In this document: positions 23,201 to 44,971 of the stretch, one piece after another
Numbering within the stretch: the first letter of the stretch is position 1
How the letters are laid out: each line of letters starts with the position of its first letter
Virus record (IMG/VR): IMGVR_UViG_3300044630_000814
Coordinates: 1 to 63,724 of that record
Direction: 5' to 3' (one strand)
Source of the DNA: a virus
Length of the DNA stretch: 63,724 bases
Program-made: the position numbers and the translations under genes
Notes under the pieces: model-generated
Databases searched by the model: none
What the model saw: the letters and a program-made list of their open reading frames with translations, nothing else
What the model was told of the DNA's origin: nothing

Positions 23201-24202
23201 CGTATGGGTATACAAGTCATGCGGGGTGAGAATGCCACTGGCCGTACTCGCGCTGCTGCCATACACGAACTAGGTGGCAACTTGGCAATGGTGGCAGTCC
23301 TTGGTGGTATAGCAGGTGCACCGCTGTTAGACGTGGTGTGCGGGGCTATTGATATGATCCTGCCGTCGCTCATGGATGACGAGGAAGAAGAAGAGTTCCG
23401 GCGTCAGCACCCATATTCATACAACAACTCCAAGCACCGGTTCCTGTACGAGTGGCTGCCGGAGAATTTTGGTAACCCTACACTGCCCGGTCTAGATGGT
23501 AAGCAGCATGCGCTGGCAGATGTCCTGCGTAACGGTATACCGTCCGAGCTTATCGGCGTTAACTTCGCATCTCGTGTTAGCTGGAACGGCATGTGGATAC
23601 GCGACAGCATCCCCGGAGAAAACTGGAGCGAGTCAATCGTAAACTGGCTTGAGACCAACCTGTCTCCCGGTGCGGCTATCAGTATCGAGTTCATCAAAGC
23701 GCTTGAGGATGTGTACAAGGGTGACGTTATGCGTGGTCTTGAGAAGATAGTCCCCGGCACATTCCGTGGTTCTATAACTGCCGAGCGGCTGTCAACTCAG
23801 GGGGCAGAAACCCGCAAGGGTGGGAAAATGTTCGCAAAGGACGAAATTACAGCTTTGCAGCTTAACTTCCAGCGTATGGGTTGGGCACCGAACGAGGTAT
23901 CGGATTGGCAGCGTGAGCGTATGGGCGCCCTCTCTATGATTAACGCCGTTACTGGCGAACGCACTGACCTTATGGCTAAGCTAAATAAAGCTAAGTCCGA
24001 CCCCGAAGGTTCCAGCGAGACAGTTGCTGAAGTCGAAGCCGATATCCGTGAGTTCAACAGGTTGCACCCAATACCAGAACTGCAGATTGAAGAGGAAGAC
24101 ATAGCCAAGTCTCGTAGCCGCTACCTACAGAGCGAACTGGATAGCTATCGTGGTATGCAACTTACTGCGGAGCAGAAGGCTCTTATGCTAAAGTACAAAT
24201 AA
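17255..24202 (+). CDS. Giant virion (polyvalent-type) protein with HEXXH metalloprotease motif
   Basis: At 2,315 residues this is the largest gene. The N-terminus has two copies of a ~35-residue module (YRIKAPDGNTYRIEGP and HQIKAPDGNTYAIEGP). Residues ~640-950 are a Pro/Ala/Glu-rich linker with AAPVAEE repeats. HEAVH at residues 1124-1128, with DEFIAEG about 70 residues later, fits a gluzincin-type zinc peptidase. The C-terminal half is helical with a hydrophobic patch near residue 2020 followed by DDEEEEE. Giant multidomain proteins of this type are packaged and injected with the genome to protect it or modify the host. Substrate unknown; the gene ends the rightward arm. Confidence 0.7.
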   Translation: MPTYRIKAPDGNTYRIEGPPNASQADVIAAVMRQNPSAGVAKVTHQIKAPDGNTYAIEGPKNATQKEVAAAVIRQKPTAGKPPAPVKPTPKAAVEIGKRTKELDESAASLNRMIAETQRLSKLPGATASMREKANVAIEEYRKTLANIANEKGYMQRTGTLVPERSFGEIATDTLKGLGAGALRTVAGIPSLLGAVGIESPGKASEQAAERFIQRNLAPDESDAAQFGTFAQQGRRLSEVAGSVLPAFATRGASRAGMAVAGPRAVPILTRTEQAAQLALGAGPGAQQQRQAIEQYEAETGKVVNPLVRALAQAGGAAIGATEVLTLDAMMARVPSKLRGSMTSKLAGLVERIEAGGISPKAAAAEVRTLMADIQKTGRGRVGVAMLEEGTQEGTAQFAQNVLEKTAYNSEKDVTEGVAENFIYGAVVGGGVRGLTELVTKVTGGVETANKIKSDAKLIAATMRLQENPNDDAAFDTIVERMVESYGITPEKAALYAQQQLGRAREEGDTDVPDADTGVDDFGGTDAGTASDIGTTPSISGATDVGETVGGGLERAVSGVSTTDVGEGAGVSSLDETKQILADKKVKLTERVNVARQLLNDTILNNPLVSVNDVDQKQFDAAKKQLANGKYNGDPVAALEAVTGKKFAAPLDVNTTVEDVNTQEIQGGLDAVTQGIAENQAQIKSFIQGIEENQAKLAAAPEVTTPPLDVQATAPVKTAIESVTTPAPDASPIPSLAQASAQQLGITPTAAPEAAPEMAAPEVAPLSREEKPVYDPADYTPQEIYDNLTRFGYKEAERRGYVFNTAENGMFGEGVREAKNPDIQPLTDEQVLSLERGSPEVLAAYKEGQQWGKEQVAAVQAAPVAEEAALEAAPVQEPVQGYVDTRKQELAAQEAADVEAEANLRQEIEARKQQEEAAPVAEAAALEAAPVAEEVAPEVVTAPIEEAAPEVDPYAGVLADIEAALADEAIDARTHKLLTSAVERRLPLEKIEAQLDVARTRSAERAMGASNSERATPSERLQGLIYRMQDAWKVLTGKPILANARLADLLRDPDILSKMNPAQRGLAAALADVIDDDVDVYIGNLNFSPQEAFTLGTATVYDGAAPDVRLRGVSTAANIVTLLHEAVHIALIAKFGSDFKRLTDLGPDADPEMLALRDEVYNLIDAYNTMFEVESSADLLLKASPYGMKNLDEFIAEGLTQPSFQKFLEKGNLWTRFVALVRKLLKLQPKFQPQLDNVLKAGAKLIAASKNIDRMEYVSGTFEQRKKAAPKGKGSAQERVATGEAEINRGVAQAQMAADMLEFTDGLSAAIDGRDGSFFLPSIKEGWASFNDATREYILPALTSSFIINDIDKGRLPPLRRMETIEANIRGAQNRMRAQFGKLDRRFTKFVNRTGQRVLATTMHAARINEFSPSDFSSLDNALQNDPIMVWYNDAIKDPTVSKGQVAAFKGKKTIREKQIKAVWKLWEELGKQKNGHDIYVRVRDFYADMYTIMRTEQNSFIKKLPIDDAAKEELLVAVDPDTFAEGEADPNDPHAGIPDSVRPKEYFPFRRYGKYWLTVKGDGIKTGRERHHFETAFGRNAFLRKRAKELGVDPQNENVFEKGNTLEDFQNNLVESSLMLSNIFSVIDKAVISGNYDTTKYATPAEALEAMKKELRDKLYQTYLMTLPERSLRRQFIHAERVTGFSSDVLRNFRSSSAQYAVQIPKLQYGSDVNSVISEGYDALEGMPVDEKAAARTYVDEMVQRLRGAINPEAPNAFVAGVSRFAFYEVMSSIASAASQMLSVPISVMPKLNADYGYTAAAAAFMRYSFIPYSFGLPERDADGMFSQVMPSIGTSVAVKSNPIRARAFKEFTDRDLFDSSAASSLFLNNEMAHTYSSYNIPAEVLGLAFKAMRLPFTMFDVASREMSAMMFFDLDYGKNRKDGMEPEEAYNAAIQNTVNGLNETIGSHNLFERPRYMVGQIRQLLFLFRMYAVNRTMFGLRMGIQVMRGENATGRTRAAAIHELGGNLAMVAVLGGIAGAPLLDVVCGAIDMILPSLMDDEEEEEFRRQHPYSYNNSKHRFLYEWLPENFGNPTLPGLDGKQHALADVLRNGIPSELIGVNFASRVSWNGMWIRDSIPGENWSESIVNWLETNLSPGAAISIEFIKALEDVYKGDVMRGLEKIVPGTFRGSITAERLSTQGAETRKGGKMFAKDEITALQLNFQRMGWAPNEVSDWQRERMGALSMINAVTGERTDLMAKLNKAKSDPEGSSETVAEVEADIREFNRLHPIPELQIEEEDIAKSRSRYLQSELDSYRGMQLTAEQKALMLKYK

Positions 24203-32314: not shown

Positions 32315-33073
32315 TCATTTAAGATTGCCACCGCTCTGCAGGATGTCACCACCAAACACATACGTGCCTACATGGTGCAGCTTGATGAACGGGTGGGCGT
32401 GTATTTTGCCACCGTGGTTGCGCCACAGTTCGCAAAAATGGTAATCTTCGCTTAGCAATGCGCCACTGGCGTCTATGCTGGTAGCGAAAAACTCGTGGGT
32501 CAAAGGCTTGGCATACTCGCCTGTCACTGGGTCTTGGAACGATGATACGCGGTAGGTGGGTACGTGGGGTATAAGGTGCTCGAATACCCCCCGCTTGATG
32601 AGCATGAAGCCTGTGCCACCATGGCGGACCTCAATGCAGCCTGTCTCGTCGCTGTGCACATCTTCACCCCCGACCATGTTGAACACAAATGCTCCGGCAT
32701 GGTTCTCAAGGTCGGACTTACCTGCAAGTGCTGCACGGTTGACGCTATCCCAGTTCACTTCCTTCTTAGGGTAGATACCGCATGCGATGTCCTTGTCGGC
32801 CAGCAACAAGTGCGCGATGGCCTCACTGTCGAAACCAATGTCGGCGTCAATGAACATCAGATAGTCGTGGTCACTCTCAAGGAACACCCGTGCCAGTTCG
32901 TTACGCGCCCGTGTGATAAGGCTCTCGTTCATAATCTGACACCATGCCACATTGACGCCGATTTCCCGCATCTTGTTCATGGTCATCAACAAGCCTTGCA
33001 CATAGTGCCCCGTGCACATGCCCCCATACATGGGTGTGGCAATCATTAGGCTTGGGCGTTTTTCTTCAGTCAT
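32315..33073 (-). CDS. GT-A-type glycosyltransferase (early copy)
   Basis: A 252-residue protein with LMIATPMYGG, then TRARNELARVFLESDHDYLMF followed by IDADIGF, the DxD nucleotide-sugar/metal motif. HGGTGFMLIKRGVFE and LSEDYHFCELWR follow, typical of small phage and bacterial GT-A enzymes. It has a paralogue in the head operon at 57602. The early copy could modify phage DNA or a host surface or protein target. Acceptor and sugar cannot be read. Confidence 0.75.
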   Translation of the reverse strand: MTEEKRPSLMIATPMYGGMCTGHYVQGLLMTMNKMREIGVNVAWCQIMNESLITRARNELARVFLESDHDYLMFIDADIGFDSEAIAHLLLADKDIACGIYPKKEVNWDSVNRAALAGKSDLENHAGAFVFNMVGGEDVHSDETGCIEVRHGGTGFMLIKRGVFEHLIPHVPTYRVSSFQDPVTGEYAKPLTHEFFATSIDASGALLSEDYHFCELWRNHGGKIHAHPFIKLHHVGTYVFGGDILQSGGNLK

Positions 33074-33227
33074 TTGCTTTTTGCTTTCTCTTTAATTTGT
33101 AATAGCGGCCTTCCACGGAGGCAATCGTAAGCCCCATTCGTTCCGCTATATATGCTGGCCTCAAGCCATGTTGGTAATAAGCCAGTAACTCTGCGTCCTT
33201 CTCAGGAGTCCATACTTTTTTAGGCAC
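33066..33227 (-). CDS. Small GcrA/Myb-like HTH protein
   Basis: A 53-residue protein from GTG 33227, with a GGAGG ribosome site. It reads MPKKVWTPEKDAELLAYY, then IAERMGLTIASVEGRYYKLK, a Trp-containing helix-turn-helix like the GcrA N-terminal or SANT domain. It overlaps the glycosyltransferase start by eight bases and the upstream gene by one (TAGTG). A paralogue beginning MPKKVW is at 44596. It is probably a DNA-binding regulator. Confidence 0.65.
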   Translation of the reverse strand: MPKKVWTPEKDAELLAYYQHGLRPAYIAERMGLTIASVEGRYYKLKRKQKAND

Positions 33228-33425: not shown

Positions 33426-33941
33426 TTATCTACGTACTAATTTCTTCAACTTCCCAAGCGTTGACCCCAGTGTCGCGCCTGTGCTGCCGTTAGCTATAGG
33501 CAGACTGTTCGGAGACTGCCCCGCTATGTGTGTAACCCCTGCGCTCCGGTACATATCACGGTCCACGTCGTACACACCTAGCTGTCCCACGGCATTCTGA
33601 TACTGCTGCATTTGCTGCATTTGCTGCTGCATTGCTTGCTGCTTCGTAAGTAGCAGTGACTTTGAAAGGTTACGCTCGTACTCCTGCTCTTCAAATACCT
33701 TGCGGCGGCGCTCTTCACCGTTAAGCAACTCGTCCATCACCCGTTCGTGGGTTTCGGCCAGTCGGATTTCCCGTAAACCTTCGGCCATTGCAGCCTTGTC
33801 AGCCTCACTCCCAAAAGCCTGTATCGAATTTACGTGGTCATACCAGCGGTCGTGGAACGGTGCGTCTGCGACCCTAAACTCTTCGGGGTGGCTCTTCATC
33901 CGCTTGAGTAGCAGTGTTACTACCTCGTGTGGCTCACTCAT
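33426..33941 (-). CDS. Hypothetical protein with LLLxRMxxHPEEF domain
   Basis: A 171-residue protein. The N-terminus (VTLLLKRMKSHPEEF) is shared with the protein at 37583. The middle is a charged helix (ETHERVMDELLNGEERRRKVFEE) and a Gln/Met-rich run (QQMQQMQQYQ), ending in a basic KLKKLVRR. It is coupled to the alpha-CTD-like gene by a four-base overlap. Function unknown; the shared domain suggests a phage-specific protein-binding module. Confidence 0.5.
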   Translation of the reverse strand: MSEPHEVVTLLLKRMKSHPEEFRVADAPFHDRWYDHVNSIQAFGSEADKAAMAEGLREIRLAETHERVMDELLNGEERRRKVFEEQEYERNLSKSLLLTKQQAMQQQMQQMQQYQNAVGQLGVYDVDRDMYRSAGVTHIAGQSPNSLPIANGSTGATLGSTLGKLKKLVRR

Positions 33942-34339
33942 TGGTCTGCTCCTAGTTTCTCTAGCGTATCCACAAGGTCCCGCGCACGGCGCACAAAACT
34001 ACCAAGCTCGTTGCGTGTTCTGTCGATACGTGAAAGGGTATCCCTTAATGCTTGGATTGTGTGGTACTCGCTAGAGGCCGTTGTCCCCTCTGGTTCGTCA
34101 ACAAGCCAAAGTATGTGTTTCCATTCGACCAGTGACTTCCTACCAAAGTTAGGGGTCCGCAGCATCTCTTCATCTGATATGTGCCTCAGGTCTTTAACCT
34201 TTGGCAGGGGCAACGTGCCAGCTGGCTCAAATGGTCGCCACCCGTGTATGTCTCTGTACATACCAAGGAGGCAGTTGGCCGTCCGTACCGATAGCTCTAG
34301 GTCGTCAATCAGCGTTTCGTTTGTAGGTTTAACCAACAT
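33938..34339 (-). CDS. Stand-alone RNA polymerase alpha C-terminal-domain-like protein
   Basis: A 133-residue protein from ATG 34339 (AAGGAGCAGACC upstream). Residues 11-24 (IDDLELSVRTANCL) and 59-73 (MLRTPNFGRKSLVEW) match the two conserved blocks of the RpoA C-terminal domain. R19, N22, C23, G66, K68, S69 and E72 correspond to E. coli R265, N268, C269, G296, K298, S299 and E302, the residues that bind UP-element DNA or activators. About 20 extra residues separate the blocks. There is no alpha N-terminal dimerisation domain. It is probably a transcription modifier that mimics or replaces host alpha-CTD at promoters. Confidence 0.72.
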   Translation of the reverse strand: MLVKPTNETLIDDLELSVRTANCLLGMYRDIHGWRPFEPAGTLPLPKVKDLRHISDEEMLRTPNFGRKSLVEWKHILWLVDEPEGTTASSEYHTIQALRDTLSRIDRTRNELGSFVRRARDLVDTLEKLGADQ

Positions 34340-34547
34340 GGTCTGCTCCTTCTCTCTGCTTACGTGCCTCGTCAATACGGGCTTGCTGTGCTGCTCGGCG
34401 GCCTTCCCTACCTACAACCTGACGCGCTCGCTCACGGGTAAGCCCATACTTTCGCCCCAAGGCTGCGAACGTGGTTCCTTGCTCCTCGCGTTCCCTATGG
34501 ATTGCTAGGTCTCGCTCGGCATTAACCCTAACTCCTTTAACCGCCAT
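34329..34547 (-). CDS. Sigma region 4-like HTH protein
   Basis: Seventy-two residues with RDLAIHREREEQGTTFAALG followed by RKYGLTRERARQVV. This is close to sigma70 region 4.2 (pattern TL--IG--F-VTRER-RQI), the helix-turn-helix that reads the -35 element. It lacks regions 2 and 3, so it cannot be a full sigma factor. It overlaps the polymerase gene upstream and the alpha-CTD-like gene downstream by 11 bases each, implying coupled translation. It likely binds DNA or core polymerase. Confidence 0.68.
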   Translation of the reverse strand: MAVKGVRVNAERDLAIHREREEQGTTFAALGRKYGLTRERARQVVGREGRRAAQQARIDEARKQREGADHVG

Positions 34548-36354
34548 AACTTTCTCCTATGTGGCTTTCACAGTTTAATGGTAATCCTAACGCCCACTTG
34601 GGGCGTATACGCATGCAAATCTCTACGAACTCTTGGGCGCGTTCGGCTTCTTCTGTTGGGACAATGCAGCCCACAGCGTCATGCACCGTCATGACCACAC
34701 GATACTTACGGGCAATCATCAACATCTGTTCGCCAATCACGATACGAGCGAGAGCCTGACATACATTCTCGATGAGCTTCCCACCGTATATGCGGTTAGG
34801 TATAACCGCCTTACCTCTCTTCTGGTCGTAAATCATCTCTTGCTTGCCATCGGTAAACACCCACCGAAGGTTCGGATATTTGAGGTATAGCCCGTTGGGT
34901 AGTCGGATACCGTTGTATCCTTCAACCTGTACAACGCCAGCAAGCCCAAGGGGTGCTGTCTGGTTGTTAGCGATAGCGTCGAGCGCCTCGCCAGCCTCAC
35001 GCCACAACTCAGGGATTTTAGGGTAAGTCTCCCGATACACCCTGATGATGCGGTCGCATTCGCTTTGCGGTAGGTCCACACCCATTGACTTAAGCTGGAT
35101 GCGGAACTTTTTAGGCCCCATGCCATACCCTGCACCGAGGATTGTTGTCTTACCCACGAACCGCTGGTCCTTGGTCACAGCCTCGCGGTCAACGCCGTAT
35201 ATGGAGGATGCCATAATTTTATAAACGTCCTCGCCTTTCTCGAAGGCATCCACAAGGTCGTTCTGCCCTGCCAGCCACGCTAAGGTCCGCGCTTCAATCT
35301 GCGAGGAGTCGCTGTCCACAAACATATGGTTCGGAGGTGCGAGGATGCAGTCTTTGAGGGGTGAGTTGCGAGGTAGGTTCTGCATGTTAACCTTATCGTC
35401 GCCGCCCCAGCGCCCCGTGTGTGCTGCGTAGTAGCGTAGTGGGATGGGTAGTAGTCCCCGTGTCGCTATGCCCATGAACCGTTCGGTGCGTGTCTCTTCC
35501 AGCGTAGACTTTACCCCTAGCCGCGCAGCTACAAGCGCTTGAACCTGTGGGTCCTCATGCTCCAACAGTGCCTTGAACTCCTCGTCGCTCTTGGCGAACG
35601 CATAGGTCTCCTTGCCCGTGGTTGGGCTAATCTTCGTTGGGGGTGTTACACCTAAGTTTGTTAGTATCTCAGCAAACTTCGGGTTACTCATCAACTGTTC
35701 GCGGTCAGCGTTTATCTTTTCCATGAGCAACGCTTTGTCTTCACGCACTTTACCAAGATGCGTTACCAGTGAGTAGTAACCTACCTCCAGTGTAGGTTCA
35801 GTGAACATGCGTATCGTCAGGTCTATGAGCCGCAGTTCAGCCACAGGGAAGTCCACCGCAAGGCACTCGAAAAGCTTATAGGTAAGCTCCGTGTCGTTGA
35901 CACAATACTCTGCGTAGCGGGATAGCTCGTCTGACGTGAAGTCCAGTCGTCCTTTGCCAAGTGCGTTTACGACCTCGTTGCCTTTTACCCCTAGCTTATA
36001 GTGTTCGGCCAGTGCTTTTAGGCTTCCGCTCACCGACGTGCCGTGCTTGGCCCGTGCCATAGATAGCGTGTCCACTATGCGTTTGGGTCGGATGTCGAAC
36101 TGCCAGTTGAGGATAGCCATGTCGAACATGGCGTTGTGTGCCACGGCGGTCGCCTCGTCCCACGCAAACTGCGAAAGCCATTTTTGCGTAGCTTCCTTCG
36201 GACCGGAGAACCACTGGGCCGGTGCGTCGTTCACCTTTACAGATACGCCGATAGCCTCAAACAACTCATCGCGGATATACTCTTCGGTGGTAACCTTGGA
36301 GAGCGAGTAGGTCCGGTCGTAGTAAGTCTCGAAGTCGATGGTCAGGATGGTCAC
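34537..36354 (-). CDS. DNA polymerase family A (PolI-like) with 3'-5' exonuclease
   Basis: A 605-residue replicative polymerase. The exonuclease domain begins TIDFETY (D7, E9) and has HNAMFD and YAEYCVNDTELT. Polymerase motif A is DSDSSQIEARTLAWL, motif B is RFVGKTTILGAGYG, and motif C is TVHDAVG. The residue equivalent to E. coli F762 is Leu (L406). There is no 5'-3' exonuclease domain. It works with the primase-helicase, SSB-like protein and nucleases on this strand. It is followed by the sigma-4-like gene with an 11-base overlap. Confidence 0.92.
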   Translation of the reverse strand: MTILTIDFETYYDRTYSLSKVTTEEYIRDELFEAIGVSVKVNDAPAQWFSGPKEATQKWLSQFAWDEATAVAHNAMFDMAILNWQFDIRPKRIVDTLSMARAKHGTSVSGSLKALAEHYKLGVKGNEVVNALGKGRLDFTSDELSRYAEYCVNDTELTYKLFECLAVDFPVAELRLIDLTIRMFTEPTLEVGYYSLVTHLGKVREDKALLMEKINADREQLMSNPKFAEILTNLGVTPPTKISPTTGKETYAFAKSDEEFKALLEHEDPQVQALVAARLGVKSTLEETRTERFMGIATRGLLPIPLRYYAAHTGRWGGDDKVNMQNLPRNSPLKDCILAPPNHMFVDSDSSQIEARTLAWLAGQNDLVDAFEKGEDVYKIMASSIYGVDREAVTKDQRFVGKTTILGAGYGMGPKKFRIQLKSMGVDLPQSECDRIIRVYRETYPKIPELWREAGEALDAIANNQTAPLGLAGVVQVEGYNGIRLPNGLYLKYPNLRWVFTDGKQEMIYDQKRGKAVIPNRIYGGKLIENVCQALARIVIGEQMLMIARKYRVVMTVHDAVGCIVPTEEAERAQEFVEICMRIRPKWALGLPLNCESHIGESYGG

Positions 36355-37570: not shown

Positions 37571-37589
37571 CACCTAACAGGGTTAGGTG
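37571..37589. promoter_or_regulatory. CTAAC operator-like repeat (19-bp perfect arms)
   Basis: CACCTAAC-AGG-GTTAGGTG is the longest version of the CTAACNNNGTTAG element, with eight paired bases per arm. It covers the stop codon of the gene at 37583 and lies just before the gene starting at 37546. It could act as operator or RNA hairpin. Confidence 0.55.
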
Positions 37590-37879
37590 CTGCCATCGGT
37601 TAGCAGCGTAGCCATAACCCTGCGACTGAAGCTATCGCCTTGGATGCTCATATACTTATCGTAGAGTATGAGGATTTCACGGTCTGTCAGGAACCCAAGG
37701 GACTCGTGATGCAGCACTGGGTCCTCGTCCGGTGACTTGTTCATAAAGTCTATCCGTGTCTTGACCGCCCCCATTACCCACCTCCACTTTTCGCGGACAT
37801 GTTTGTCTGGGTTGTGGGTATTAAACTCTTCGGGATGAGTATCCATCCGTTGCAGCAAAAGCTCTACACCTTGGTTCAT
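37583..37879 (-). CDS. Hypothetical protein with LLLxRMxxHPEEF domain
   Basis: Ninety-eight residues beginning MNQGVELLLQRMDTHPEEF, clearly related to the N-terminus of the protein at 33426. The remainder (KWRWVMGAVKTRIDFM, LTDREILILYDKYM) is helical. It overlaps the capsid-mimic gene upstream by four bases. The domain probably exists alone here and fused there. Function unknown. Confidence 0.55.
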   Translation of the reverse strand: MNQGVELLLQRMDTHPEEFNTHNPDKHVREKWRWVMGAVKTRIDFMNKSPDEDPVLHHESLGFLTDREILILYDKYMSIQGDSFSRRVMATLLTDGST

Positions 37880-38124
37880 ATGTTTGGCCCCATAAATTTT
37901 TTATATGCGTCCATCTCGTCGGGAGCGTCTGTGATTTTGACGGGGTTTGTGCCCTCGTCTCGCTCAAACCATGGCACGATTTTGGTAACTTTAAGTTCCC
38001 CAGTGTTGGAGTCATGTTCAGCGTAGACTGCCCATGTGTTTCCATACTCCTCATACTTCATACCAAACAGCTCGTTTAGGCCCGGAAGCAGTTCCTTGAG
38101 TAATTGGGCGCGACTGATAGCCAT
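37876..38124 (-). CDS. Early protein with major-capsid-protein N-terminus
   Basis: An 82-residue protein beginning MAISRAQLLKELLPGLNELF. The major capsid protein at 55811 begins with 17 identical residues and continues the same way except Ala for Glu at residue 18, then the related ...LFGxxYxxYG. The DNA codes differ at many third positions, so the similarity is old and selected rather than a recent copy. After residue ~28 it diverges into an acidic domain (AVYAEHDSNTGELKVTKIVP). It lies between a VRR-NUC nuclease and the LLLxRM protein. It may interact with capsid assembly partners. Confidence 0.6.
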   Translation of the reverse strand: MAISRAQLLKELLPGLNELFGMKYEEYGNTWAVYAEHDSNTGELKVTKIVPWFERDEGTNPVKITDAPDEMDAYKKFMGPNI

Positions 38125-38429
38125 CAGTGAACCTCCCCTTTTAATTTTTTAACAAGGTCAGGGAGCATGTCGTAGTTCGTCTCGTCTACTACTACAGCTA
38201 CGCCGTTAGACCGACGTATCGCTTCAATCTCGCGCACCTGTAGTGCCGTAGTCTTGCCGCCGTTTGCCTTGCACTCAACGGCAAGAAACCAGCCGTTCAC
38301 ACAGGCTACAATGTCGGGGACGCCACTACGTCCGAAGCCGTGGGTTGCGGGGGAAAAGAAATATACTTCATGTGCAGTGAAGATAGATTTTACCTTATCC
38401 TTCACTTTTTTCTCAGGCGTTGCTGCCAT
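38124..38429 (-). CDS. VRR-NUC nuclease
   Basis: A 101-residue protein from ATG 38429 (AAGGAGCAAACC upstream). GRSGVPDIVACVNGWFLAVE followed by CKANGG carries the D...ExK catalytic core, and TALQVREIEAIRRSNGVAVV completes the VRR-NUC pattern. Stand-alone VRR-NUC proteins cut branched DNA such as Holliday junctions. It likely resolves replication or packaging intermediates. It is the first gene after promoter P2. Confidence 0.85.
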   Translation of the reverse strand: MAATPEKKVKDKVKSIFTAHEVYFFSPATHGFGRSGVPDIVACVNGWFLAVECKANGGKTTALQVREIEAIRRSNGVAVVVDETNYDMLPDLVKKLKGEVH

Positions 38430-38453
38430 GGTTTGCTCCTTGTTTGGCATCCC

Positions 38454-38481
38454 ACCATACACCATCGGTTTACAATGTCAA
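38454..38481 (-). promoter_or_regulatory. Promoter P2
   Basis: TTGACA (38476-38481) and TATGGT (38454-38459) on the minus strand are 16 bases apart. It aligns with P1 (29044-29071) through TTGACA(A/T)TGT and GTGTATG with GGG downstream. It lies just after a terminator and before the VRR-NUC gene, so it likely drives the polymerase-containing operon. Confidence 0.65.
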
Positions 38482-38498
38482 ATGCTAAGGATAAAAAA

Positions 38499-38520
38499 AG
38501 ACCGCCCCGAAAGGCGGTCT
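38499..38520 (-). terminator. Intrinsic terminator
   Basis: AGACCGCC pairs with GGCGGTCT around a six-base loop, and on the minus strand it is followed by TTTTTTTATCC. It ends the leftward operon that carries the MoxR/VWA genes and separates it from promoter P2. Confidence 0.88.
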
Positions 38521-38523
38521 AGT

Positions 38524-38536
38524 CTAACATAGTTAG
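38524..38536. promoter_or_regulatory. CTAACATAGTTAG operator-like repeat
   Basis: A perfect 5-3-5 inverted repeat between the stop of the gene at 38550 and the terminator at 38499. It is about 45 bp upstream of the P2 -35 element. Confidence 0.55.
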
Positions 38537-38549
38537 GAGCAACTATATG

Positions 38550-38723
38550 TTATCTGTGTGTATCAGCGTAGTCCGCTAAGACTTCACGCATCTTAGCCGT
38601 GTAGCTAGGGTATGTTTTGTAATAGTCTAGCACCTCCGTTGGTATGCGTAGGTGTGTCAGGCTCATGGCCGGACGCTTGCCCAGCCCACGCTGCCCTCGG
38701 TATCGTTTTGGTTCTTCAGTCAT
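38550..38723 (-). CDS. Small ribbon-helix-helix-like protein
   Basis: Fifty-seven residues. ATG 38723 overlaps the upstream stop (ATGA). After a basic N-terminus (PKRYRGQRGLGKRPA) it reads MSLTHLRIPTEVLDYYKTYP followed by SYTAKMREVLADYA. The short beta strand, the LRIPxEVLxYY helix and the second helix resemble BrnA/Arc-type antitoxins and repressors. No toxin gene adjoins it, so a transcription-regulator role is more likely. It ends the MoxR operon. Confidence 0.55.
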   Translation of the reverse strand: MTEEPKRYRGQRGLGKRPAMSLTHLRIPTEVLDYYKTYPSYTAKMREVLADYADTHR

Positions 38724-39589
38724 ACGGGTTCCTTATCCATAACAAAGAAGGCATGGTCGTTAAGTCGCACACCTACGTTGGGTATAATCCGACTACCCTC
38801 ATGTAGTTTGAGGAAGCCAAGGTTGCGGCGGATGTTGTCTGTCAGTTGTTCGCTGGACTTGACCTCTGTCTCTCGCTCGTCCCCGAAGCCGCGCACCATG
38901 ATGTAGTCGCTGCCTCGCGTGATTATAGTGAACCCTTCTCGGTTGCGATAGGCCAGTTCTACACCCTCCGCTTCGTTCCTAGCAGCGAGTCGCTCAGGCA
39001 TATCCTCTGGCACTGGTGCGCCCATTGCCTTTAGCGCAGGTGCTACCGCATCCCAGTTATTCATAACATACTGCGTGACAAACGGACTGATACGCCTGTA
39101 ACCCGCATCAAAATCTTTGTTAACGAGATGGGTGTTTCCGGATAGCTTAGTAGTTATGGCCTGTTCATATTCTATAATGCTCTCGTCTAGTGTCTTACCA
39201 TGGAAGGCTTTAAGTATGCTCTTCACTGCTAGGTCGAGCTTACTGGTTTTAGTCCATATACCCCGCTGGCGCTTATGGGCTAGCCTTGGGTTATCGAAGC
39301 GGTAGTATGTAACTGACCCCACACCAGCGCGATACCCAGACTCAATGGAGATTTCTCCTAACGACTGGCCGCTCTCGTAGATGTCAAAGTGGTGCGCCGT
39401 TACTGTTTCACCCGTTATATTTACGTTAGCGGATATTAGCGTCCATTGCGGGCGGTGCTTATGTAGCTCCTCTATTAAGGGTAGCGCCTTCTCGTGGACC
39501 ACGAACCGCGTATCAGGTTTTACGAAAGCAGGGTTGCGGCTGATGGACGCATGAGAGAAACCCTCGCATGGGTATAGTTGCTTAGTCAT
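38720..39589 (-). CDS. Conserved hypothetical protein of MoxR/VWA operon
   Basis: A 289-residue protein from ATG 39589 (AAGGAG eight bases upstream). It contains THFD-like segments TVTAHHFDIYESGQSLG, ITTKLSGNTHLVNKDF and a C-terminal VGVRLNDHAFFVMDKEP. No catalytic signature is evident. It follows the DUF3150-like gene and may be part of the same module. Confidence 0.5.
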   Translation of the reverse strand: MTKQLYPCEGFSHASISRNPAFVKPDTRFVVHEKALPLIEELHKHRPQWTLISANVNITGETVTAHHFDIYESGQSLGEISIESGYRAGVGSVTYYRFDNPRLAHKRQRGIWTKTSKLDLAVKSILKAFHGKTLDESIIEYEQAITTKLSGNTHLVNKDFDAGYRRISPFVTQYVMNNWDAVAPALKAMGAPVPEDMPERLAARNEAEGVELAYRNREGFTIITRGSDYIMVRGFGDERETEVKSSEQLTDNIRRNLGFLKLHEGSRIIPNVGVRLNDHAFFVMDKEPV

Positions 39590-39612
39590 TGTGATTACTC
39601 CTTCTCTATATC

Positions 39613-40455
39613 TTACCAATCAAAGCCCGAAAGGATTGTATCGAGCTTGCCCTTGACGTTGGTGCGGATGTCTTCGCTTTCCTTGAGGTCATCAATATCC
39701 AAGCCAATCAAAGCCGACTCCAGCTTGCGCCGCGCATCCTCTAGCTTGGGGTCGCCAGTGAGGTTGAGGTGAGTAAGCATCCCGCACATTTCCTGTGCGT
39801 TCGTAATGAAGGTGTCGTGCCAGCGGGTCTTTTCCTCTAGCCCTAGCTTAGTAGACATTGAGGTCAGCATCTTGTGCAGCTGCTCCCATGGGGTGCGCAT
39901 GGCTTCGTCAACACGGCTAACAAAATTATCATCATACTCCTTGCGTATGGCGTCGAGTTCTTGGTTGGGGATGTCCACACGGAAGTCACCCGACTCTGGC
40001 ACAGGGGAGAACACAAGGCGGAAGCCAAACTTGTCCATCACCTCATCCACGCTTGGGTAGTCCGCAGGGTCATGCAGGTCGCCCATGTGCTGCGCCGCAG
40101 TGGTCATCAGCTTGGGGTATTCGAGGCGAAACTTATCTACCAACTGCGTGAACGTATCACGTCGTGCGTTGGCCTCGGTCTTGTATGCCATGAAGAGGCT
40201 TGTGGGTAGCAGCCTAGCACCTCGGTCTGCCCAAGGTAATGTCCGACTGTTGTGCCATGTGCGGCACAGCGCAGCGAAGTCCGCTATGTCCTTGCGCAGG
40301 GTTGTGCCAGCCATGAGGTTCTTACGCACTTGGGCTGCATCGCTGGTCGCGTTGCTGTCAGCGGTCAGCTTGGTGGTGGTATCCTTGTCCAGCTTGTTGG
40401 CTGTCCAGACGGATATGTTCAGTTCGACAAGAACCGATGAAGATGTAATGCTCAT
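39613..40455 (-). CDS. DUF3150-like protein, partner of MoxR/VWA
   Basis: A 280-residue protein beginning MSITSSSVLVELNISVWTA. It has DRGARLLPTSLFMAYK and long helices later (WEQLHKMLTSMSTKLGL, DPKLEDARRKLESALIG). The pattern fits DUF3150 proteins, which in phages sit beside MoxR-type ATPases and VWA proteins, as here. It could be the substrate or adaptor of that chaperone-like pair. Function has not been assigned to my knowledge. Confidence 0.62.
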   Translation of the reverse strand: MSITSSSVLVELNISVWTANKLDKDTTTKLTADSNATSDAAQVRKNLMAGTTLRKDIADFAALCRTWHNSRTLPWADRGARLLPTSLFMAYKTEANARRDTFTQLVDKFRLEYPKLMTTAAQHMGDLHDPADYPSVDEVMDKFGFRLVFSPVPESGDFRVDIPNQELDAIRKEYDDNFVSRVDEAMRTPWEQLHKMLTSMSTKLGLEEKTRWHDTFITNAQEMCGMLTHLNLTGDPKLEDARRKLESALIGLDIDDLKESEDIRTNVKGKLDTILSGFDW

Positions 40456-40479
40456 TAGTTTGCTCCTATTGTGTTATAT

Positions 40480-40492
40480 GTAACTTAGTTAG
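40480..40492. promoter_or_regulatory. CTAAC-type operator-like repeat (one mismatch)
   Basis: GTAACTTAGTTAG lies between the DUF3150-like gene start and the small gene ending at 40518. The first base departs from the CTAACNNNGTTAG consensus. Confidence 0.45.
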
Positions 40493-40517
40493 GTCGTCCG
40501 GTTTGCTATCCGGTATT

Positions 40518-40763
40518 TTATTTCTCGTCGGGTTTACCCGCCAACTTAGCCATGCGGTATAGACCATCAGGCATCATCGTAATGTCGCGCATCTCGCTGC
40601 TCATGTCCTGCTCCCAGACATGGTAGGTAGTGCCGCCATCTTGCGCCGAACGATAGGTCCTATGATAGTGTTCAGCCTTGGCTAGGATTTCATGTATGCG
40701 CAGTGCATCCTCTGCCTCCACGATATAATGGTCGTAGCCGTAACGTATGATTGCTTTAGACAT
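40518..40763 (-). CDS. Small hypothetical protein
   Basis: Eighty-one residues from ATG 40763 (AAGGAGCAAATA upstream). It opens MSKAIIRYGYDHYIVEAEDA and contains YRSAQDGGTTYHVW and ITMMPDGLYRMAKLAG. It probably folds as a small alpha/beta domain. It lies inside the MoxR/VWA/DUF3150 operon, between the VWA and DUF3150-like genes. Confidence 0.55.
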   Translation of the reverse strand: MSKAIIRYGYDHYIVEAEDALRIHEILAKAEHYHRTYRSAQDGGTTYHVWEQDMSSEMRDITMMPDGLYRMAKLAGKPDEK

Positions 40764-40773
40764 TATTTGCTCC

Positions 40774-41982
40774 TTATCCTTTGATATGCACAGTTTTGCC
40801 AACTGGTGACACGATACGGCCTGAGCTGTAGCGATGCTCGGAGATTACCCACATGATAGGCGCACCCCAGTCGTCACCCCAGTCACCGACATACCCGTCA
40901 GTCAGCTGGATGATGCACTCTGGCTTGATGTTTTGTTCCTTGAGGTAGTGCATCATACAGGTTGGGTCAGTGCCGCCACCGCCCACTGGCTTGGTAGAGC
41001 TAACAAGGTTAGACATGGTTGCCATGTCATAGACCTCATGCCCTGCCACCGCTCCGTCCCAATAGATGAGGTCTATCTTGTCGGGATGCACCTCCTCGAC
41101 GATAGCCTTGACCTCGGACAGGAACACGCTGAGTTCGTCCGCACCGATAGAGCCGCTTGTGTCTACGCCGATAGCGATATGCCCGACCTTCTCCCCTACT
41201 AGCGTAGGGAGATATACGTCTTGGCTTAGCATGCGCCTGTTGACCCTGCGCCATGATGACGCATCCTTGGCATTGCAAGTAGCGGACACAAACTCACGCA
41301 GTGCTTCGCGCCAGTCTATCTGTGGTTGGAGCATGTCACCCAGCTCGCGGTTGACACCTAGCCCGCCTTTGCCCGCAGCTTTCATAGATGCTATCTGGCC
41401 TTGGCGTAGGGCTTGGTCCACCTCGCGTTCTAGTTCCTTGCGCTCGTCGGCAGTCATTTCCTTGGCCCCGTCCCAGTCATGCTCGTCGAACCCTTCGCCG
41501 CCTTGACCACCATCAGGGTTATCCTTCTTCTCCTGCTTGAGTATGTCGAAGACTTGCTTGGTGTTCATGCCTTTGAAGCGGGTGTCGTAACACGCCATCG
41601 GTGTGCCATCCTCGCGGCGAACCATAGCGATGACTTGCTCGTTCGGGTCCATCTCCATAATCATAAGGTTGATGACATGGTCCATTGCGATGTTGGCTAG
41701 GTGAGGGTCCTCTGCTCGGAGCTTCTGCCACGTTGTCATGTGACGTAAGCCCTTGTGCATGTTCTCGTGTAGCACGACGAAGCCCAGTTGCTTCTCGTCT
41801 AACTTTGTTATGAACTCCAAGCCGTATATCTCGTCACGCCCGTTGGTGCATGCCGTTGGCACGTCCTCGGCTACGCTGGTCTTGCCGACCATCATGATGC
41901 CAGACCACAACGCAAACATGGGGTTGCGCATCAGGTTAATCTTGACTTTCTTGAGCTTGCGCTCAGCTTTCTGCATATCCAT
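40774..41982 (-). CDS. Metallopeptidase-like plus VWA-domain protein (DUF2201-type)
   Basis: A 402-residue protein from ATG 41982 (AAGGAGCAAACTA upstream). Residues 70-76 are VLHENMH, a zinc-peptidase HEXXH motif. Residues ~150-195 are a charged linker. The C-terminal VWA-like domain has the metal site DTSGSIG (274-280) with LTDGYVGDW further on. This matches DUF2201-type metallopeptidase/VWA proteins, which pair with MoxR ATPases. The MoxR gene directly precedes it. Together they may remodel or cleave a host or phage complex. Confidence 0.78.
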   Translation of the reverse strand: MDMQKAERKLKKVKINLMRNPMFALWSGIMMVGKTSVAEDVPTACTNGRDEIYGLEFITKLDEKQLGFVVLHENMHKGLRHMTTWQKLRAEDPHLANIAMDHVINLMIMEMDPNEQVIAMVRREDGTPMACYDTRFKGMNTKQVFDILKQEKKDNPDGGQGGEGFDEHDWDGAKEMTADERKELEREVDQALRQGQIASMKAAGKGGLGVNRELGDMLQPQIDWREALREFVSATCNAKDASSWRRVNRRMLSQDVYLPTLVGEKVGHIAIGVDTSGSIGADELSVFLSEVKAIVEEVHPDKIDLIYWDGAVAGHEVYDMATMSNLVSSTKPVGGGGTDPTCMMHYLKEQNIKPECIIQLTDGYVGDWGDDWGAPIMWVISEHRYSSGRIVSPVGKTVHIKG

Positions 41983-42004
41983 TAGTTTGCTCCTTGTGTT
42001 GGTA

Positions 42005-43072
42005 TCAAAGTAGGTCCTCGTTATCCCGCACCCAGTTAGCGAATGCAGCGGATGAAAACGCAACCGACTGGCGCTGCGGGTTCTTCGCAATGTTGATAGC
42101 GAAGCATGCTTGCCACTCTGGTTCGAAGCGGGACAGGTAGGTCATGAACGGCGTCATTGTCTCTTTAGTCACCTTCATGATTGCACCAAAGATAAGCACC
42201 GCACATGCTCCTGCTGACGTAGGGATAGCCGCATCATTCGGCTTGGATGTGATGTTCTCCCATGTGGGTAGCTGGTCTTGGTATGTGATGTAGGCTTGCA
42301 TGTCCCGCGCTGCTGCCTCACCGATTGTGCCTGATAGCGCAGCGGTAAGAGCGTTGGATGAAATCCGCTCACGATGCCTCACAATGTTAGATGCACGCGA
42401 CAAAGAGCGTGGGCTGACATAGGACTTCTGCATAGCCTTGGGGTTGTAGATATATGCGTTCTCGTTCTGCGTGCCGTCAGTGTATGAAGCCAGCGCATGC
42501 GGGAACTGCTTAACCCAAGCCATGACAACAGGCTCAACGTCATTGTTGATTGCCCACTCAAGCCACTGGTCGCTGTCAGGCTTGGCTACGCGCACTCTGG
42601 ATACTCTGTTAAGAGTATGGCCCTTGATAACATCGCCGACACCATCGCTCGACAAGTTAGATGTGAGGAACACGATTGAGTCTGGATGTAGCTCAATGTC
42701 GCCCAGTCGTGGGTTGTGTTCTTCGAGTAGCGGGTGAAGCATATTCTGCACAGGCGGCGGAGCCTTGGCAAACTCGTCAAGCATGATGACTGCTGGCTTG
42801 CCATGCTGCAACTGGAGCGCAGCATTGGGGAAATACTCTGTTACCCGTAGCTCTCGGTTGACGCTTGGCATGGCAATGTCACCCAAGTCCTTCTGCGCAC
42901 AGTCGAAGTAGGCATAGACGTAGCGGTCACCTAGCTTGGCCTTGAGCGCCTTCATGATGCTAGACTTACCAATCCCAGGTTCGCCTTCGAGCAGGAACCG
43001 ATTGTCGGGGATGGCTGCGATAAGCTCTGCGGCTTCGGCAAGTGAGATGTTTGAACCAAAATCAATAGACAT
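42005..43072 (-). CDS. MoxR-family AAA+ ATPase
   Basis: A 355-residue protein with Walker A GEPGIGKSS (residues 30-38), Walker B AVIMLDEFAKA (D99, E100), sensor 1 FLTSNLSSDG and an arginine-rich segment SPRSLSRASNIVRHR. MoxR ATPases act as chaperones with VWA partners, like RavA with ViaA. The gene is first after promoter P3 and is followed by the HEXXH/VWA and DUF3150-like genes. It likely powers assembly, inactivation or remodelling of a target still unknown. Confidence 0.85.
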   Translation of the reverse strand: MSIDFGSNISLAEAAELIAAIPDNRFLLEGEPGIGKSSIMKALKAKLGDRYVYAYFDCAQKDLGDIAMPSVNRELRVTEYFPNAALQLQHGKPAVIMLDEFAKAPPPVQNMLHPLLEEHNPRLGDIELHPDSIVFLTSNLSSDGVGDVIKGHTLNRVSRVRVAKPDSDQWLEWAINNDVEPVVMAWVKQFPHALASYTDGTQNENAYIYNPKAMQKSYVSPRSLSRASNIVRHRERISSNALTAALSGTIGEAAARDMQAYITYQDQLPTWENITSKPNDAAIPTSAGACAVLIFGAIMKVTKETMTPFMTYLSRFEPEWQACFAINIAKNPQRQSVAFSSAAFANWVRDNEDLL

Positions 43073-43089
43073 AATATTACTCCTTCGTT

Positions 43090-43102
43090 GTAACTTTGTT
43101 AG
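43090..43102. promoter_or_regulatory. Operator-like repeat downstream of P3
   Basis: GTAACTTTGTTAG, one mismatch from consensus, is centred about +43 from the predicted P3 start. An equivalent element occupies the same place relative to P4. Confidence 0.6.
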
Positions 43103-43145
43103 GCTTGTTTACTCTAGTTGGCTGATTTCTCAGCTTTTTCTTTTT

Positions 43146-43174
43146 ATTGTAGCACAATAACATACCCAAGTCAA
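43146..43174 (-). promoter_or_regulatory. Promoter P3 (MoxR operon)
   Basis: TTGACT (43169-43174), a 17-base spacer and TACAAT (43146-43151) on the minus strand. The region CCCACATCACTTGAC is identical upstream in P4, and TTGTGCTACAA is shared at the -10. A GCTGA-GAAA-TCAGC hairpin lies in the transcribed leader. CTAAC repeats sit at about -69 and +43. Confidence 0.78.
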
Positions 43175-43201
43175 GTGATGTGGGCATCGGGTCGGGGACC
43201 T

Positions 43202-43214
43202 CTAACTTTGTTAG
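43202..43214. promoter_or_regulatory. CTAACTTTGTTAG operator-like repeat upstream of P3
   Basis: A perfect inverted repeat 27 bp before the -35 hexamer, overlapping the 3' end of the gene at 43211. The same 27-bp spacing is seen at P4. Confidence 0.65.
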
Positions 43215-44155
43215 AACCAATTCATATAGCGGTCCTTTGTCGGCACACCCAGCTTCGCTGGCTTGCGCTCCAACACCTCATAGCGGTGCATGAACATGAG
43301 TAGCTCGTCGAACGTTCTGCCTATGCGCTCTGGTGAGACGGAGATGCCTTCGGAGCTAATCCAATAGCGTCCCTCGTGGGCGCTTCTTATGATAGTAAGC
43401 AAAGCTCGGTAGTTATCCTCGACCTTGTCACTGCGTATCAGTCCCTTGAGGTTGTCTGCCTGTGACGCATAGTTGCGGTTAGCTTCCACCATGTTAGTGC
43501 GCTCTATGAGGTTGTGCGCCTCAAACTCACTGCGGCTTACCTTCACCACGGGTAGGGTCACATCAGGCCCATTCCAGCGCGGCTGCGATACATACTCGGT
43601 GCGCAGCTTGGTCATTGCGGAGAGGTATTTCCTGAACTCTGTGTATTCCTTCCTAACTTTGTTAGCTGCCTTGCGGTTGACCGCATGCTTCACGTTTTCT
43701 TCTATGTCGTCGATTAGCCAGTGGTTCTCATGGCGGACAACGCGCACAGGTGTGTTGTTAGGTAGCCGCCAATCGCCTTGCACAATCTCAGGCGCGTTTG
43801 ACCCTATGGCCCTACGCATGAAGCAAGTAACCCAAGCCCTGTAGTGGAAGGTATACATCTTTAGCCCAAGCAACATGTAGAACATGTCGTGTGTCGTGGG
43901 CGATACCCAGCCACCATTGTTTATGGTTAGCGTATTATCTGGATGGTAACGCACGATGTCCGTGGCATGCATCCGCACCACGATGTCGTTACCCTCCTTG
44001 CGTATGTTGTAGTATTTCTTGTTGCGCGCACCCAGCGGCTTAGTTCCGTCCTTGTCGCCCCTGACGGGATTGACAAGGGACTCGTGCCTCGCTGCGTCGT
44101 TGTATGATGCAAGTCTGGGGATGTCCCAGTTGCGGTAGTGGTTATTCCAGCCCAT
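43211..44155 (-). CDS. Conserved hypothetical phage protein
   Basis: A 314-residue protein with AAGGAGCAAAC before ATG 44155. It contains PLGARNKKYYNIRKEG, VVRMHATDIVRYHPDNTLTI and NNGGWVSPTTHDM, then a helical basic region (KHAVNRKAANKVRKEYTEF) and a C-terminal domain. The RPLG--NIRK--DI--R-H-TDIV pattern recurs in aquatic phages without assigned function. It is last in the P4 operon. Confidence 0.55.
   Translation of the reverse strand: MGWNNHYRNWDIPRLASYNDAARHESLVNPVRGDKDGTKPLGARNKKYYNIRKEGNDIVVRMHATDIVRYHPDNTLTINNGGWVSPTTHDMFYMLLGLKMYTFHYRAWVTCFMRRAIGSNAPEIVQGDWRLPNNTPVRVVRHENHWLIDDIEENVKHAVNRKAANKVRKEYTEFRKYLSAMTKLRTEYVSQPRWNGPDVTLPVVKVSRSEFEAHNLIERTNMVEANRNYASQADNLKGLIRSDKVEDNYRALLTIIRSAHEGRYWISSEGISVSPERIGRTFDELLMFMHRYEVLERKPAKLGVPTKDRYMNWF
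43653..43665. promoter_or_regulatory. CTAACTTTGTTAG repeat inside a coding region
   Basis: A perfect copy within the gene at 43211-44155 (encoding A-N-K-V-R). Intragenic placement suggests an extra binding site or roadblock, though chance is possible for a single copy. Confidence 0.4.
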
Positions 44156-44168
44156 GTGTTTGCTCCTT

Positions 44169-44181
44169 CTAACTTTGTTAG
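44169..44181. promoter_or_regulatory. CTAACTTTGTTAG operator-like repeat
   Basis: A perfect copy spanning the stop codon of the gene at 44178 and lying a few bases before the AAGGAGC of the next gene. In RNA it would form a small hairpin beside that ribosome site. Confidence 0.55.
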
Positions 44182-44594
44182 GCTTGTGATTGAAACGATA
44201 TCTCGGTCGAGCGGTTCACGCCGACCACTGCATCTGCGTTGGTGCTCATCCTTATCTCGGTGTCTTGGTCTTCCTCGCCAAGGCGCACAAACTCCCATGC
44301 TATGTTGAACGCCGTGGGGTCGCCCGTCACTGCTTGCTCGTCTAGCAGTCGGTCGATGGCCTCGAACACTCTCTCCACCGCTTGCGGATGCTCGTAGTGC
44401 TCATACCACTTCACGTCGTTGTAATAGACGGAGATGCCTCGGCTCTCTGGGTCGTAGGTAATCCTCGCATCCCATTCGTTCGTGGCTTCCTTGACGGGGT
44501 AGTTCTCGTCGAACCATAGCTTGAGCAGCGGGTATGATGTCTCGCTGTCAACGGGTGCGTAGATAACTACGTCTACTTCTGAGCGATAGCCCAT
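44178..44594 (-). CDS. Conserved hypothetical protein, acidic
   Basis: A 138-residue protein beginning MGYRSEVDVVIYAP and containing ISVYYNDVKWYEHYEHPQAV and TGDPTAFNIAWEFVRLGEED. Small proteins opening MGYRSEV with a VKWY motif occur in many phages; their role is unknown. Strong acidity could suggest DNA mimicry or host-factor binding, but that is speculation. Confidence 0.55.
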   Translation of the reverse strand: MGYRSEVDVVIYAPVDSETSYPLLKLWFDENYPVKEATNEWDARITYDPESRGISVYYNDVKWYEHYEHPQAVERVFEAIDRLLDEQAVTGDPTAFNIAWEFVRLGEEDQDTEIRMSTNADAVVGVNRSTEISFQSQA

Positions 44595-44595
44595 G

Positions 44596-44874: not shown

Positions 44875-44875
44875 A

Positions 44876-44971
44876 TCACTTCCCCTTGAATGTGTCGTGT
44901 ATCGCCCAGACGACGAAGATAAACACGGATATGAAAAATACCTCGGCTGCTGCGTGTAATATGGTAGTCAT
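44876..44971 (-). CDS. 31-residue single-pass membrane peptide
   Basis: From ATG 44971 with AAGGAGCAAGACTA upstream. HAAAEVFFISVFIFVVWAI is a clear transmembrane helix followed by HDTFKGK. The upstream frame to 45100 is not used, since it belongs to the next gene in another frame. Tiny early membrane peptides of phages often alter host membrane functions; the role here is unknown. Confidence 0.55.
   Translation of the reverse strand: MTTILHAAAEVFFISVFIFVVWAIHDTFKGK

What the first reader, a model, noticed from the sequence alone, without database searches (positions are those of the whole stretch)
33938..34547. Overlapping gene pair encoding a sigma region 4-like HTH and a stand-alone RNA polymerase alpha-CTD-like protein
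Seen: one gene has LTRERARQVV in a sigma region 4.2-like context. The next, overlapping by 11 bases, has ELSVRTANCL and TPNFGRKSL, which keep the E. coli alpha-CTD residues for minor-groove DNA and activator contact (R265, N268, C269, G296, K298, S299, E302). Established: sigma region 4 and alpha-CTD are the two upstream promoter-reading modules of RNA polymerase and touch each other at some promoters. Inference: the phage supplies both as separate small proteins to redirect host polymerase, since it has no polymerase of its own. They may act at the phage promoters P1-P5.
Basis: partly seen in the sequence, partly recalled or inferred. Interest (0 to 1): 0.87.

Follow-up and report, generated by a model that had tools for sequence, protein, structure and literature searches.

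The report
Phage cassette: detached RNA-polymerase promoter-reading domains
A virus of bacteria carries, in a swappable gene slot, two small proteins built like the two parts of the bacterial gene-reading enzyme that recognise where genes start; similar pairs, sometimes fused into one protein, recur in many other phages, so they may steer the host's enzyme to chosen genes.

Summary
On the minus strand, a 72-aa HTH gene (34329-34547, "P2") overlaps by 11 bp a 133-aa gene (33938-34339, "P1"). P1 is an RNA polymerase alpha-CTD: Pfam PF03118 46 bits (cut-off 23.8), a predicted structure whose best PDB matches are all alpha-CTDs, and kept DNA- and sigma-4-contact residues. It adds an internal insert and a 44-residue C-terminal helix. 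P2 alone is below the sigma-4 cut-off, but two relatives pass it. Neither gene is core: the slot behind polA is hypervariable, three 60-61-kb relatives lack any alpha-CTD, each gene occurs without the other, and the P2-P1 block is 98% identical between phages whose flanks are 67-72% identical (a recently moved cassette). Within this clade HTH and alpha-CTD do not co-occur above chance. Outside it, sigma-4 HTH and alpha-CTD are repeatedly fused in one phage protein (7 of 43 viral alpha-CTD clusters versus 3 of 515 background genes, p=1e-6), including fusions found starting from P2 only. Best reading: an accessory promoter-reading adaptor acting on host RNA polymerase. Decoy and non-transcriptional roles remain open. 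Stand-alone phage alpha-CTDs were annotated before; I found no functional study of one.

The parts
34329..34547 (-). P2, 72-aa sigma-region-4-like / Mor-like HTH protein
   Evidence: family members L034 and L026 pass the Pfam Sigma70_r4 cut-off; AF2 3 helices, Foldseek hits sigma-4, KorA/ArdK
33938..34339 (-). P1, 133-aa stand-alone RNA polymerase alpha-CTD protein
   Evidence: PF03118 46.2 bits; AF2 pLDDT 84.7; Foldseek top hits all RNAP alpha chains
34097..34309 (-). alpha-CTD fold of P1 (residues 11-81), with R265/N268/C269/G296/K298/S299/E302 and D259/E261 equivalents
34202..34261 (-). insert in P1 (about residues 27-46) between alpha-CTD helices 1 and 2, absent from RpoA
   Evidence: alignments; similar length in L133, shorter in L134-L140
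33947..34078 (-). C-terminal 44-residue helix of P1 (residues 88-131), heptad-like hydrophobic spacing, possible dimerisation helix
   Evidence: AF2, hydrophobic positions; dimerisation is inference
34346..34351 (-). Shine-Dalgarno AAGGAG of P1, inside the P2 gene
   Evidence: sequence
34329..34339 (-). 11-bp P2/P1 overlap ATGTTGGTTAA, a variant of the junction ATGGCGGATAA seen at the polA end
33426..33941 (-). P6, gene after P1 (unknown function); its homologue is fused to a different alpha-CTD in relative L023
34537..36354 (-). family A DNA polymerase, border of the variable slot
   Evidence: PF00476, phrog_17

Best explanation
P1 is an alpha-CTD freed from the RNA polymerase alpha subunit and P2 is a minimal sigma-4-type HTH. 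Together they form an accessory, exchangeable promoter-reading module that acts on the host RNA polymerase. Shown: the domain identities, the kept DNA-contact and sigma-4-contact residues, the cassette mobility, and recurrent sigma-4-HTH + alpha-CTD fusion in other phages. Inferred: P2 binds a -35-like site in the major groove; P1 (perhaps dimeric through its C-terminal helix) binds the neighbouring AT-rich minor groove through the 265 determinant and contacts sigma region 4 (host sigma or P2) through D259/E261. Polymerase is thereby recruited to a subset of phage promoters, as Mor plus alpha-CTD do at the phage Mu middle promoter, but with the alpha-CTD supplied in trans.
For: P1 is an alpha-CTD by profile, structure and residues. 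The R265 equivalent is invariant in 52 of 52 viral alpha-CTDs not selected on that motif; position 261 is acidic in 47/52, 259 in 38/52. Fusions: 7 of 43 alpha-CTD clusters carry a sigma-4 HTH versus 3 of 515 background genes, p=1e-6; Pfam confirms Sigma70_r4 + PF03118 over cut-off in L020, L022, L044, L045. Searching from P2-family sequences alone returned 12 loci with a P2-like HTH fused N-terminally to an alpha-CTD, and L055, a divergent P2-alphaCTD gene pair in the same order. L133 has another sigma-4-like HTH gene overlapping the alpha-CTD gene; L135 has XRE+sigma-4 two genes away, the architecture that is fused to alpha-CTD in L022/L167. Mu Mor and alpha-CTD bind side by side at Pm (PMC4390567).
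Against: In this phage clade HTH and alpha-CTD are not linked beyond chance (p=0.64-1); P1-type genes stand alone in L003, L134, L136-L139, and P2 without P1 in L006/L007. Most viral alpha-CTD clusters carry no sigma-4 (36 of 43). P2 covers only profile positions 14-40 of 50 of sigma-4 and may lack a beta-flap surface. No binding, expression or promoter data. Conservation at 294-302 is biased by the search pattern. The sigma-4 model was built here and the clusters are not fully independent, so p=1e-6 is approximate.
Confidence: 0.45

Rival explanations
1. P1 is a decoy: a free alpha-CTD that occupies UP elements, activators or sigma region 4 and so shuts down strong host promoters (rRNA) during infection. 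P2 is an unrelated small regulator.
For: A free alpha-CTD lacks the anchor to polymerase, so it would compete; phage LUZ19 also attacks this point by cleaving the alpha-CTD off host RNA polymerase (PMC7552054). P1-type genes often stand without an HTH partner. An accessory, mobile gene fits a host-takeover factor.
Against: Recurrent fusion to sigma-4 HTH suggests targeting to sites, not simple competition; the 287 activator-contact determinant is not kept; P1 carries an added insert and helix.
Confidence: 0.27
2. P1 and P2 are general DNA-binding proteins of the replication module ((HhH)2 and HTH), helping polymerase, exonuclease or recombination, with no action on transcription.
For: Position between DNA polymerase and exonuclease/helicase genes; P2-alphaCTD fusions in another phage group sit between a primase-like and a UvrD-like helicase gene; alpha-CTD fused to P6 in L023.
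Against: RNAP-specific residues beyond generic HhH are kept (E261, C269, E302); sigma-4 modules with full 4.1-4.2 are fused to alpha-CTDs elsewhere.
Confidence: 0.2
3. P2 is a small autorepressor or accessory repressor (KorA/ArdK-type HTH) and the P2/P1 pairing is only the result of gene shuffling in a variable slot. This overlaps the decoy and replication readings of P1.
For: Foldseek ranks ArdK/KorA beside sigma-4; the slot holds many unrelated HTHs; no co-occurrence above chance in the clade.
Against: Relatives of P2 pass the Sigma70_r4 cut-off and P2-like HTH is fused to alpha-CTD in other phages; P2+P1 share one recently exchanged block between window and L004.
Confidence: 0.25

Closest known systems
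[quoted passage not shown] Caulobacter 9zum/7ye1, E. coli 3n97)
   Same: fold, two-part profile match, 265 and 261 determinants, TPNFGRKSL motif identical to the Caulobacter type
   Different: no alpha-NTD; about 20-residue insert; long C-terminal helix; encoded by a phage
Stand-alone alpha-CTD proteins annotated in phages (Caulobacter phage CcrColossus gp133, Bacillus phage Goe8 c00050, Microbacterium phage Mazun gp26, Erythrobacter phage L02 ORF40 in PMC9127768)
   Same: phage proteins with PF03118 over cut-off (CcrColossus, Goe8, Mazun; L02 as annotated by its authors); no function tested in what I found
   Different: other domain contexts, no annotated HTH partner beside them, very low identity to P1
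NCBIfam PRK07758 (NF005841), 95-aa hypothetical protein with alpha-CTD-like profile
   Same: curated model of a short alpha-CTD-like protein that matches other viral alpha-CTDs weakly
   Different: P1 itself does not match it; function unknown
Phage Mu Mor / C activators (PF08765)
   Same: P2's best Pfam hit; Mor replaces the -35 contact and works with host alpha-CTD bound next to it (PMC4390567)
   Different: P2 lacks the Mor N-terminal part and is below cut-off
T4 AsiA/MotA sigma appropriation, T4 gp33/gp55, minimal single-HTH sigma of jumbo phages (PMC7824862)
   Same: phage redirects host RNA polymerase with small sigma-4-like or sigma-4-binding proteins
   Different: none supplies an alpha-CTD

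Membership tests
RNA polymerase alpha-CTD (PF03118) | Pfam score over the curated cut-off | tested here: met
   46.2 bits vs 23.8; 47.5 in-frame
RNA polymerase alpha-CTD (PF03118) | (HhH)2 alpha-CTD fold | tested here: met
   AF2 + Foldseek: top 21 hits are RNAP alpha chains, most with probability near 1, but E 0.02-0.65
RNA polymerase alpha-CTD (PF03118) | 265 determinant residues | tested here: met
   R265, N268, C269, G296, K298, S299, E302 kept
RNA polymerase alpha-CTD (PF03118) | binds UP-element DNA or sigma-4 | not testable with these tools
   needs biochemistry
RNA polymerase alpha subunit (RpoA) | alpha-NTD for polymerase assembly | tested here: not met
   133 aa; NCBIfam rpoA cut-offs 227-523 bits, got at most 43
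Sigma-70 region 4 (PF04545) | Pfam score over cut-off for P2 | tested here: not met
   17.6 vs 24.1 bits; relatives L034 24.6 and L026 27.2 pass
Sigma-70 factor | region 2 and -10 recognition | tested here: not met
   72 aa, HTH only
Sigma-70 region 4 (PF04545) | beta-flap binding | not testable with these tools
   no complex modelling available
Mor/C activator (PF08765) | Pfam cut-off and N-terminal part of the protein | tested here: not met
   21.2 vs 24.9 bits; only profile 59-103 of 107
sigma-4 HTH + alpha-CTD phage proteins (this work) | both modules together | tested here: inconclusive
   separate overlapping genes here; fused elsewhere; not linked above chance in this clade

The most novel reading that the evidence does not exclude
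Phages possess a widespread, modular class of detachable promoter readers: sigma-4-type HTH and alpha-CTD domains, free or fused, shuffled as cassettes, that re-create in trans the upstream promoter-reading face of RNA polymerase and let a phage reprogram host polymerase without its own sigma factor or polymerase.
Probability: 0.3. Interest if true: 0.82.

Novelty: new variant of a known kind. Interest (0 to 1): 0.6.

Why it matters
Phage control of host RNA polymerase is known through sigma mimics, anti-sigmas, and enzymes that modify or cleave alpha. A free alpha-CTD supplied by the phage, with a sigma-4-like partner, would be a different handle: adding promoter-reading surface in trans. At least 43 viral alpha-CTD clusters that are not full-length rpoA turned up in one scan. 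The class can be tested directly with small purified proteins and standard UP-element and class I/II promoter assays, and it bears on whether alpha-CTD can act when not tethered to polymerase.

Tried and rejected
P1 in bacterial genomes: a genome-contig scan with P1 found no relative. The XRE-sigma4-alphaCTD fusion in bacterial genomes (A5): all 40 hits match only the sigma-4 part, so the scan does not tell whether bacteria carry the fusion. P1 is not in PHROGs and neither protein is in PADLOC. 'Virion RNA polymerase' for the 2315-aa protein rejected: the matched stretch resembles phiKMV-like internal virion/lytic proteins. Palindromes CTAACNNNGTTAG as P2/P1 sites: considered, but they occur in relatives without P1/P2 in the slot, so another core protein is the likelier binder. 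Literature searches for phage stand-alone alpha-CTD or sigma4-alphaCTD fusions found no functional paper.

Full report
WHAT IS THERE. The window is a 63.7-kb virus record whose DNA polymerase is nearest to Rhizobium phage RHph_TM3_14A (37.5%) and Pseudomonas phage KPP25 (36%). The two genes lie on the minus strand directly after the family A DNA polymerase gene (34537-36354): P2 (34547..34329, 72 aa) and P1 (34339..33938, 133 aa), overlapping by 11 bp, followed by gene P6 (33941..33426).

P1. Pfam gives RNA_pol_A_CTD at 46.2 bits (E 3.9e-12, cut-off 23.8); the match falls in two stretches because P1 has about 20 extra residues between the first and second helix of the domain. The best solved-structure hits by sequence are alpha-CTDs, the first being 9zum and 7ye1; 9zum is the Caulobacter alpha-CTD on AT-rich DNA. 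AlphaFold (12-sequence alignment) gives pLDDT 84.7 with the alpha-CTD helices and a 44-residue C-terminal helix. Foldseek's first 21 PDB hits are RNA polymerase alpha chains or alpha-CTDs, most with probability near 1, although E-values are only 0.02-0.65 because the query is small. On E. coli numbering D258, D259, E261, R265, N268, C269, N294, G296, K298, S299 and E302 are kept; residue 287, a CRP-contact position (own knowledge), is not. The C-terminal helix has hydrophobic residues at heptad-like spacing; dimerisation is inference.

P2. P2 alone is below every Pfam cut-off: Mor 21.2 (24.9), Sigma70_r4 17.6 (24.1). NCBIfam's only hit is the region-4 end of a sigma-32 model, far below cut-off. 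Its relatives L034 and L026 pass the Sigma70_r4 cut-off. The model is a three-helix HTH whose Foldseek neighbours are sigma region 4 and the plasmid repressors KorA/ArdK. 'Sigma-4-like HTH' is therefore a family-level statement.

A SWAPPABLE SLOT. The interval between polA and P6 differs among close relatives: P2+P1 (window, L004), P1 alone (L003), P2 with another gene (L006/L007), other HTHs (L024, L026, L030, L034), a Cys-rich protein (L032/L033), or nothing (L027, L035, L036). P2 and P1 are 98.2-98.3% identical in DNA between window and L004, while polA is 67% and P6 72%; P1 is 98.3% identical between window and L003, while polA is 65% and P6 64%. The identity drops sharply at the polA end and the P6 start. 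The block has been exchanged recently between divergent phages. Three relatives of 60-61 kb (G007, G009, G011) have no alpha-CTD match. The genes are accessory. Inside this clade a sigma-4-like HTH is next to an alpha-CTD in 4 of 8 alpha-CTD lineages and present in 4 of about 10 lineages without alpha-CTD: no association (p=1; p=0.64 if L135 is counted; lineages grouped by eye).

THE P1 FAMILY. L133-L140 carry 109-130-aa relatives of P1 (33-49% identity over most of P1; L140 is cut off by its contig end), and where the contig shows it they sit behind polA too. P1 and L133 differ at codon positions 1/2/3 in 62/40/83 of 128 codons, as expected of a protein under selection. L055 has a P2-like gene (57%) followed by a divergent alpha-CTD gene and P6, the same order as here. 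L133 has a different sigma-4-like HTH gene overlapping its alpha-CTD gene, and L135 an XRE+sigma-4 gene two genes downstream. In L023 a different alpha-CTD is fused to a P6 homologue. In L151/L194 yet another alpha-CTD sits before polA.

FUSIONS ELSEWHERE. Two alignment scans of viral contigs gave viral alpha-CTD proteins, none a full-length rpoA by size. Of 43 clusters at 60% identity in the second scan, 7 carry a sigma-4-type HTH in the same protein, against 3 of 515 other gene clusters on the same contigs (odds ratio 33, p=1e-6). The HTH model was built here and includes P2-family sequences, so the number is approximate. Pfam confirms Sigma70_r4 and PF03118 together over cut-off in L020, L022, L044 and L045. 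Independently, a search started from P2-family sequences only, with no alpha-CTD in the query, returned 12 loci in which a P2-like HTH is fused to an alpha-CTD in a 122-167-aa protein; some of those alpha-CTDs are diverged. In 52 viral sequences not selected on the first motif, the R265 equivalent is invariant, position 261 is acidic in 47 and 259 in 38. The second motif was selected by the search and its conservation is not evidence.

MECHANISM. Established knowledge: alpha-CTD binds AT-rich minor groove through R265 and neighbours and can contact sigma region 4 through D259/E261; Mor of phage Mu replaces the -35 contact and works with host alpha-CTD bound beside it (PMC4390567); phage LUZ19 cleaves the alpha-CTD off host polymerase (PMC7552054). 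From this I infer that P1 and P2 form an accessory promoter-reading adaptor acting in trans. The adaptor model explains the kept surfaces and the fusions. The decoy model explains the absence of an alpha-NTD and the frequent lack of a partner. A replication role explains the neighbourhood. Nothing here measures binding, so the adaptor gets less than even odds.

POLYMERASE. No beta-subunit domain was found (control positive); the single-subunit search is uninformative because its control never rang. The 2315-aa protein's partial 'virion RNA polymerase' PHROG match lies in a stretch resembling phiKMV-like internal virion/lytic proteins, with no Pfam or PDB match.

NOVELTY. Phage alpha-CTD proteins have been annotated in CcrColossus, Goe8 and Erythrobacter phage L02 (PMC9127768), so a stand-alone alpha-CTD in a phage is not new. 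I found no functional study and no description of sigma-4/alpha-CTD fusions in the open library; most subscription papers are not held, so this is not proof of absence. New here: the P1 family with insert and C-terminal helix, its cassette behaviour, and the recurrent split/fused pairing.

Noticed in passing
window 37574-46628 (12 sites: 37574, 38524, 41000, 43202, 43653, 44169, 45194, 45922, 46034, 46434, 46531, 46616): Palindrome CTAACNNNGTTAG occurs 12 times (0.04 expected by shuffling), all upstream of the polA cluster, some just before a ribosome-binding site or upstream of promoter-like sites (43174, 38481 on the minus strand). Also 10-15 copies in related contigs G005, G007, G018, the first two without P1/P2 in the slot: looks like a clade-wide operator.
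   Followed up: partly
window 34329-34339 and 34537-34547; L003 5990-6011, L006 end of P2, L024 end of slot gene: Plug-in junction: polA and several slot genes end in ..(A)SYGG*, with GGAGCA..ATGGCGGATAA, so the end of each gene holds the RBS and start of the next (11-bp overlap). This may let cassettes be swapped by short homology.
   Followed up: partly
L069, L078, L080, L084, L087, L088, L108, L111, L112, L114, L118, L123: P2-like HTH fused to a diverged alpha-CTD between a primase-like and a UvrD-like helicase gene in another phage group.
   Followed up: partly
L023 4992-5633: alpha-CTD fused to a homologue of P6, the gene next to P1 in the window; suggests a link between alpha-CTD and P6, whose function is unknown.
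   Followed up: partly
L151 2899-3327 and L194 2944-3327: A second alpha-CTD lineage in the same phage clade, placed between a VRR-NUC-like gene and polA.
   Followed up: no
window 33066-33227 (-) and 44596-44874 (-): Two small HTH proteins that both start MPKKVW (53 and 92 aa), probably paralogues; the first matches Myb/GcrA-like and 'D5-like' regulator profiles weakly, the second sigma-4 weakly.
   Followed up: no
window 46041-46600: Intergenic stretch rich in TGTAAG/CTTACA (11 of 26 in the whole window) and 48-nt direct repeats 97 bp apart; possible origin or control region.
   Followed up: no
window 17255-24202 (+): 2315-aa protein, similar in part to phiKMV-like internal virion/lytic proteins and to DarB-like families.
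   Followed up: partly
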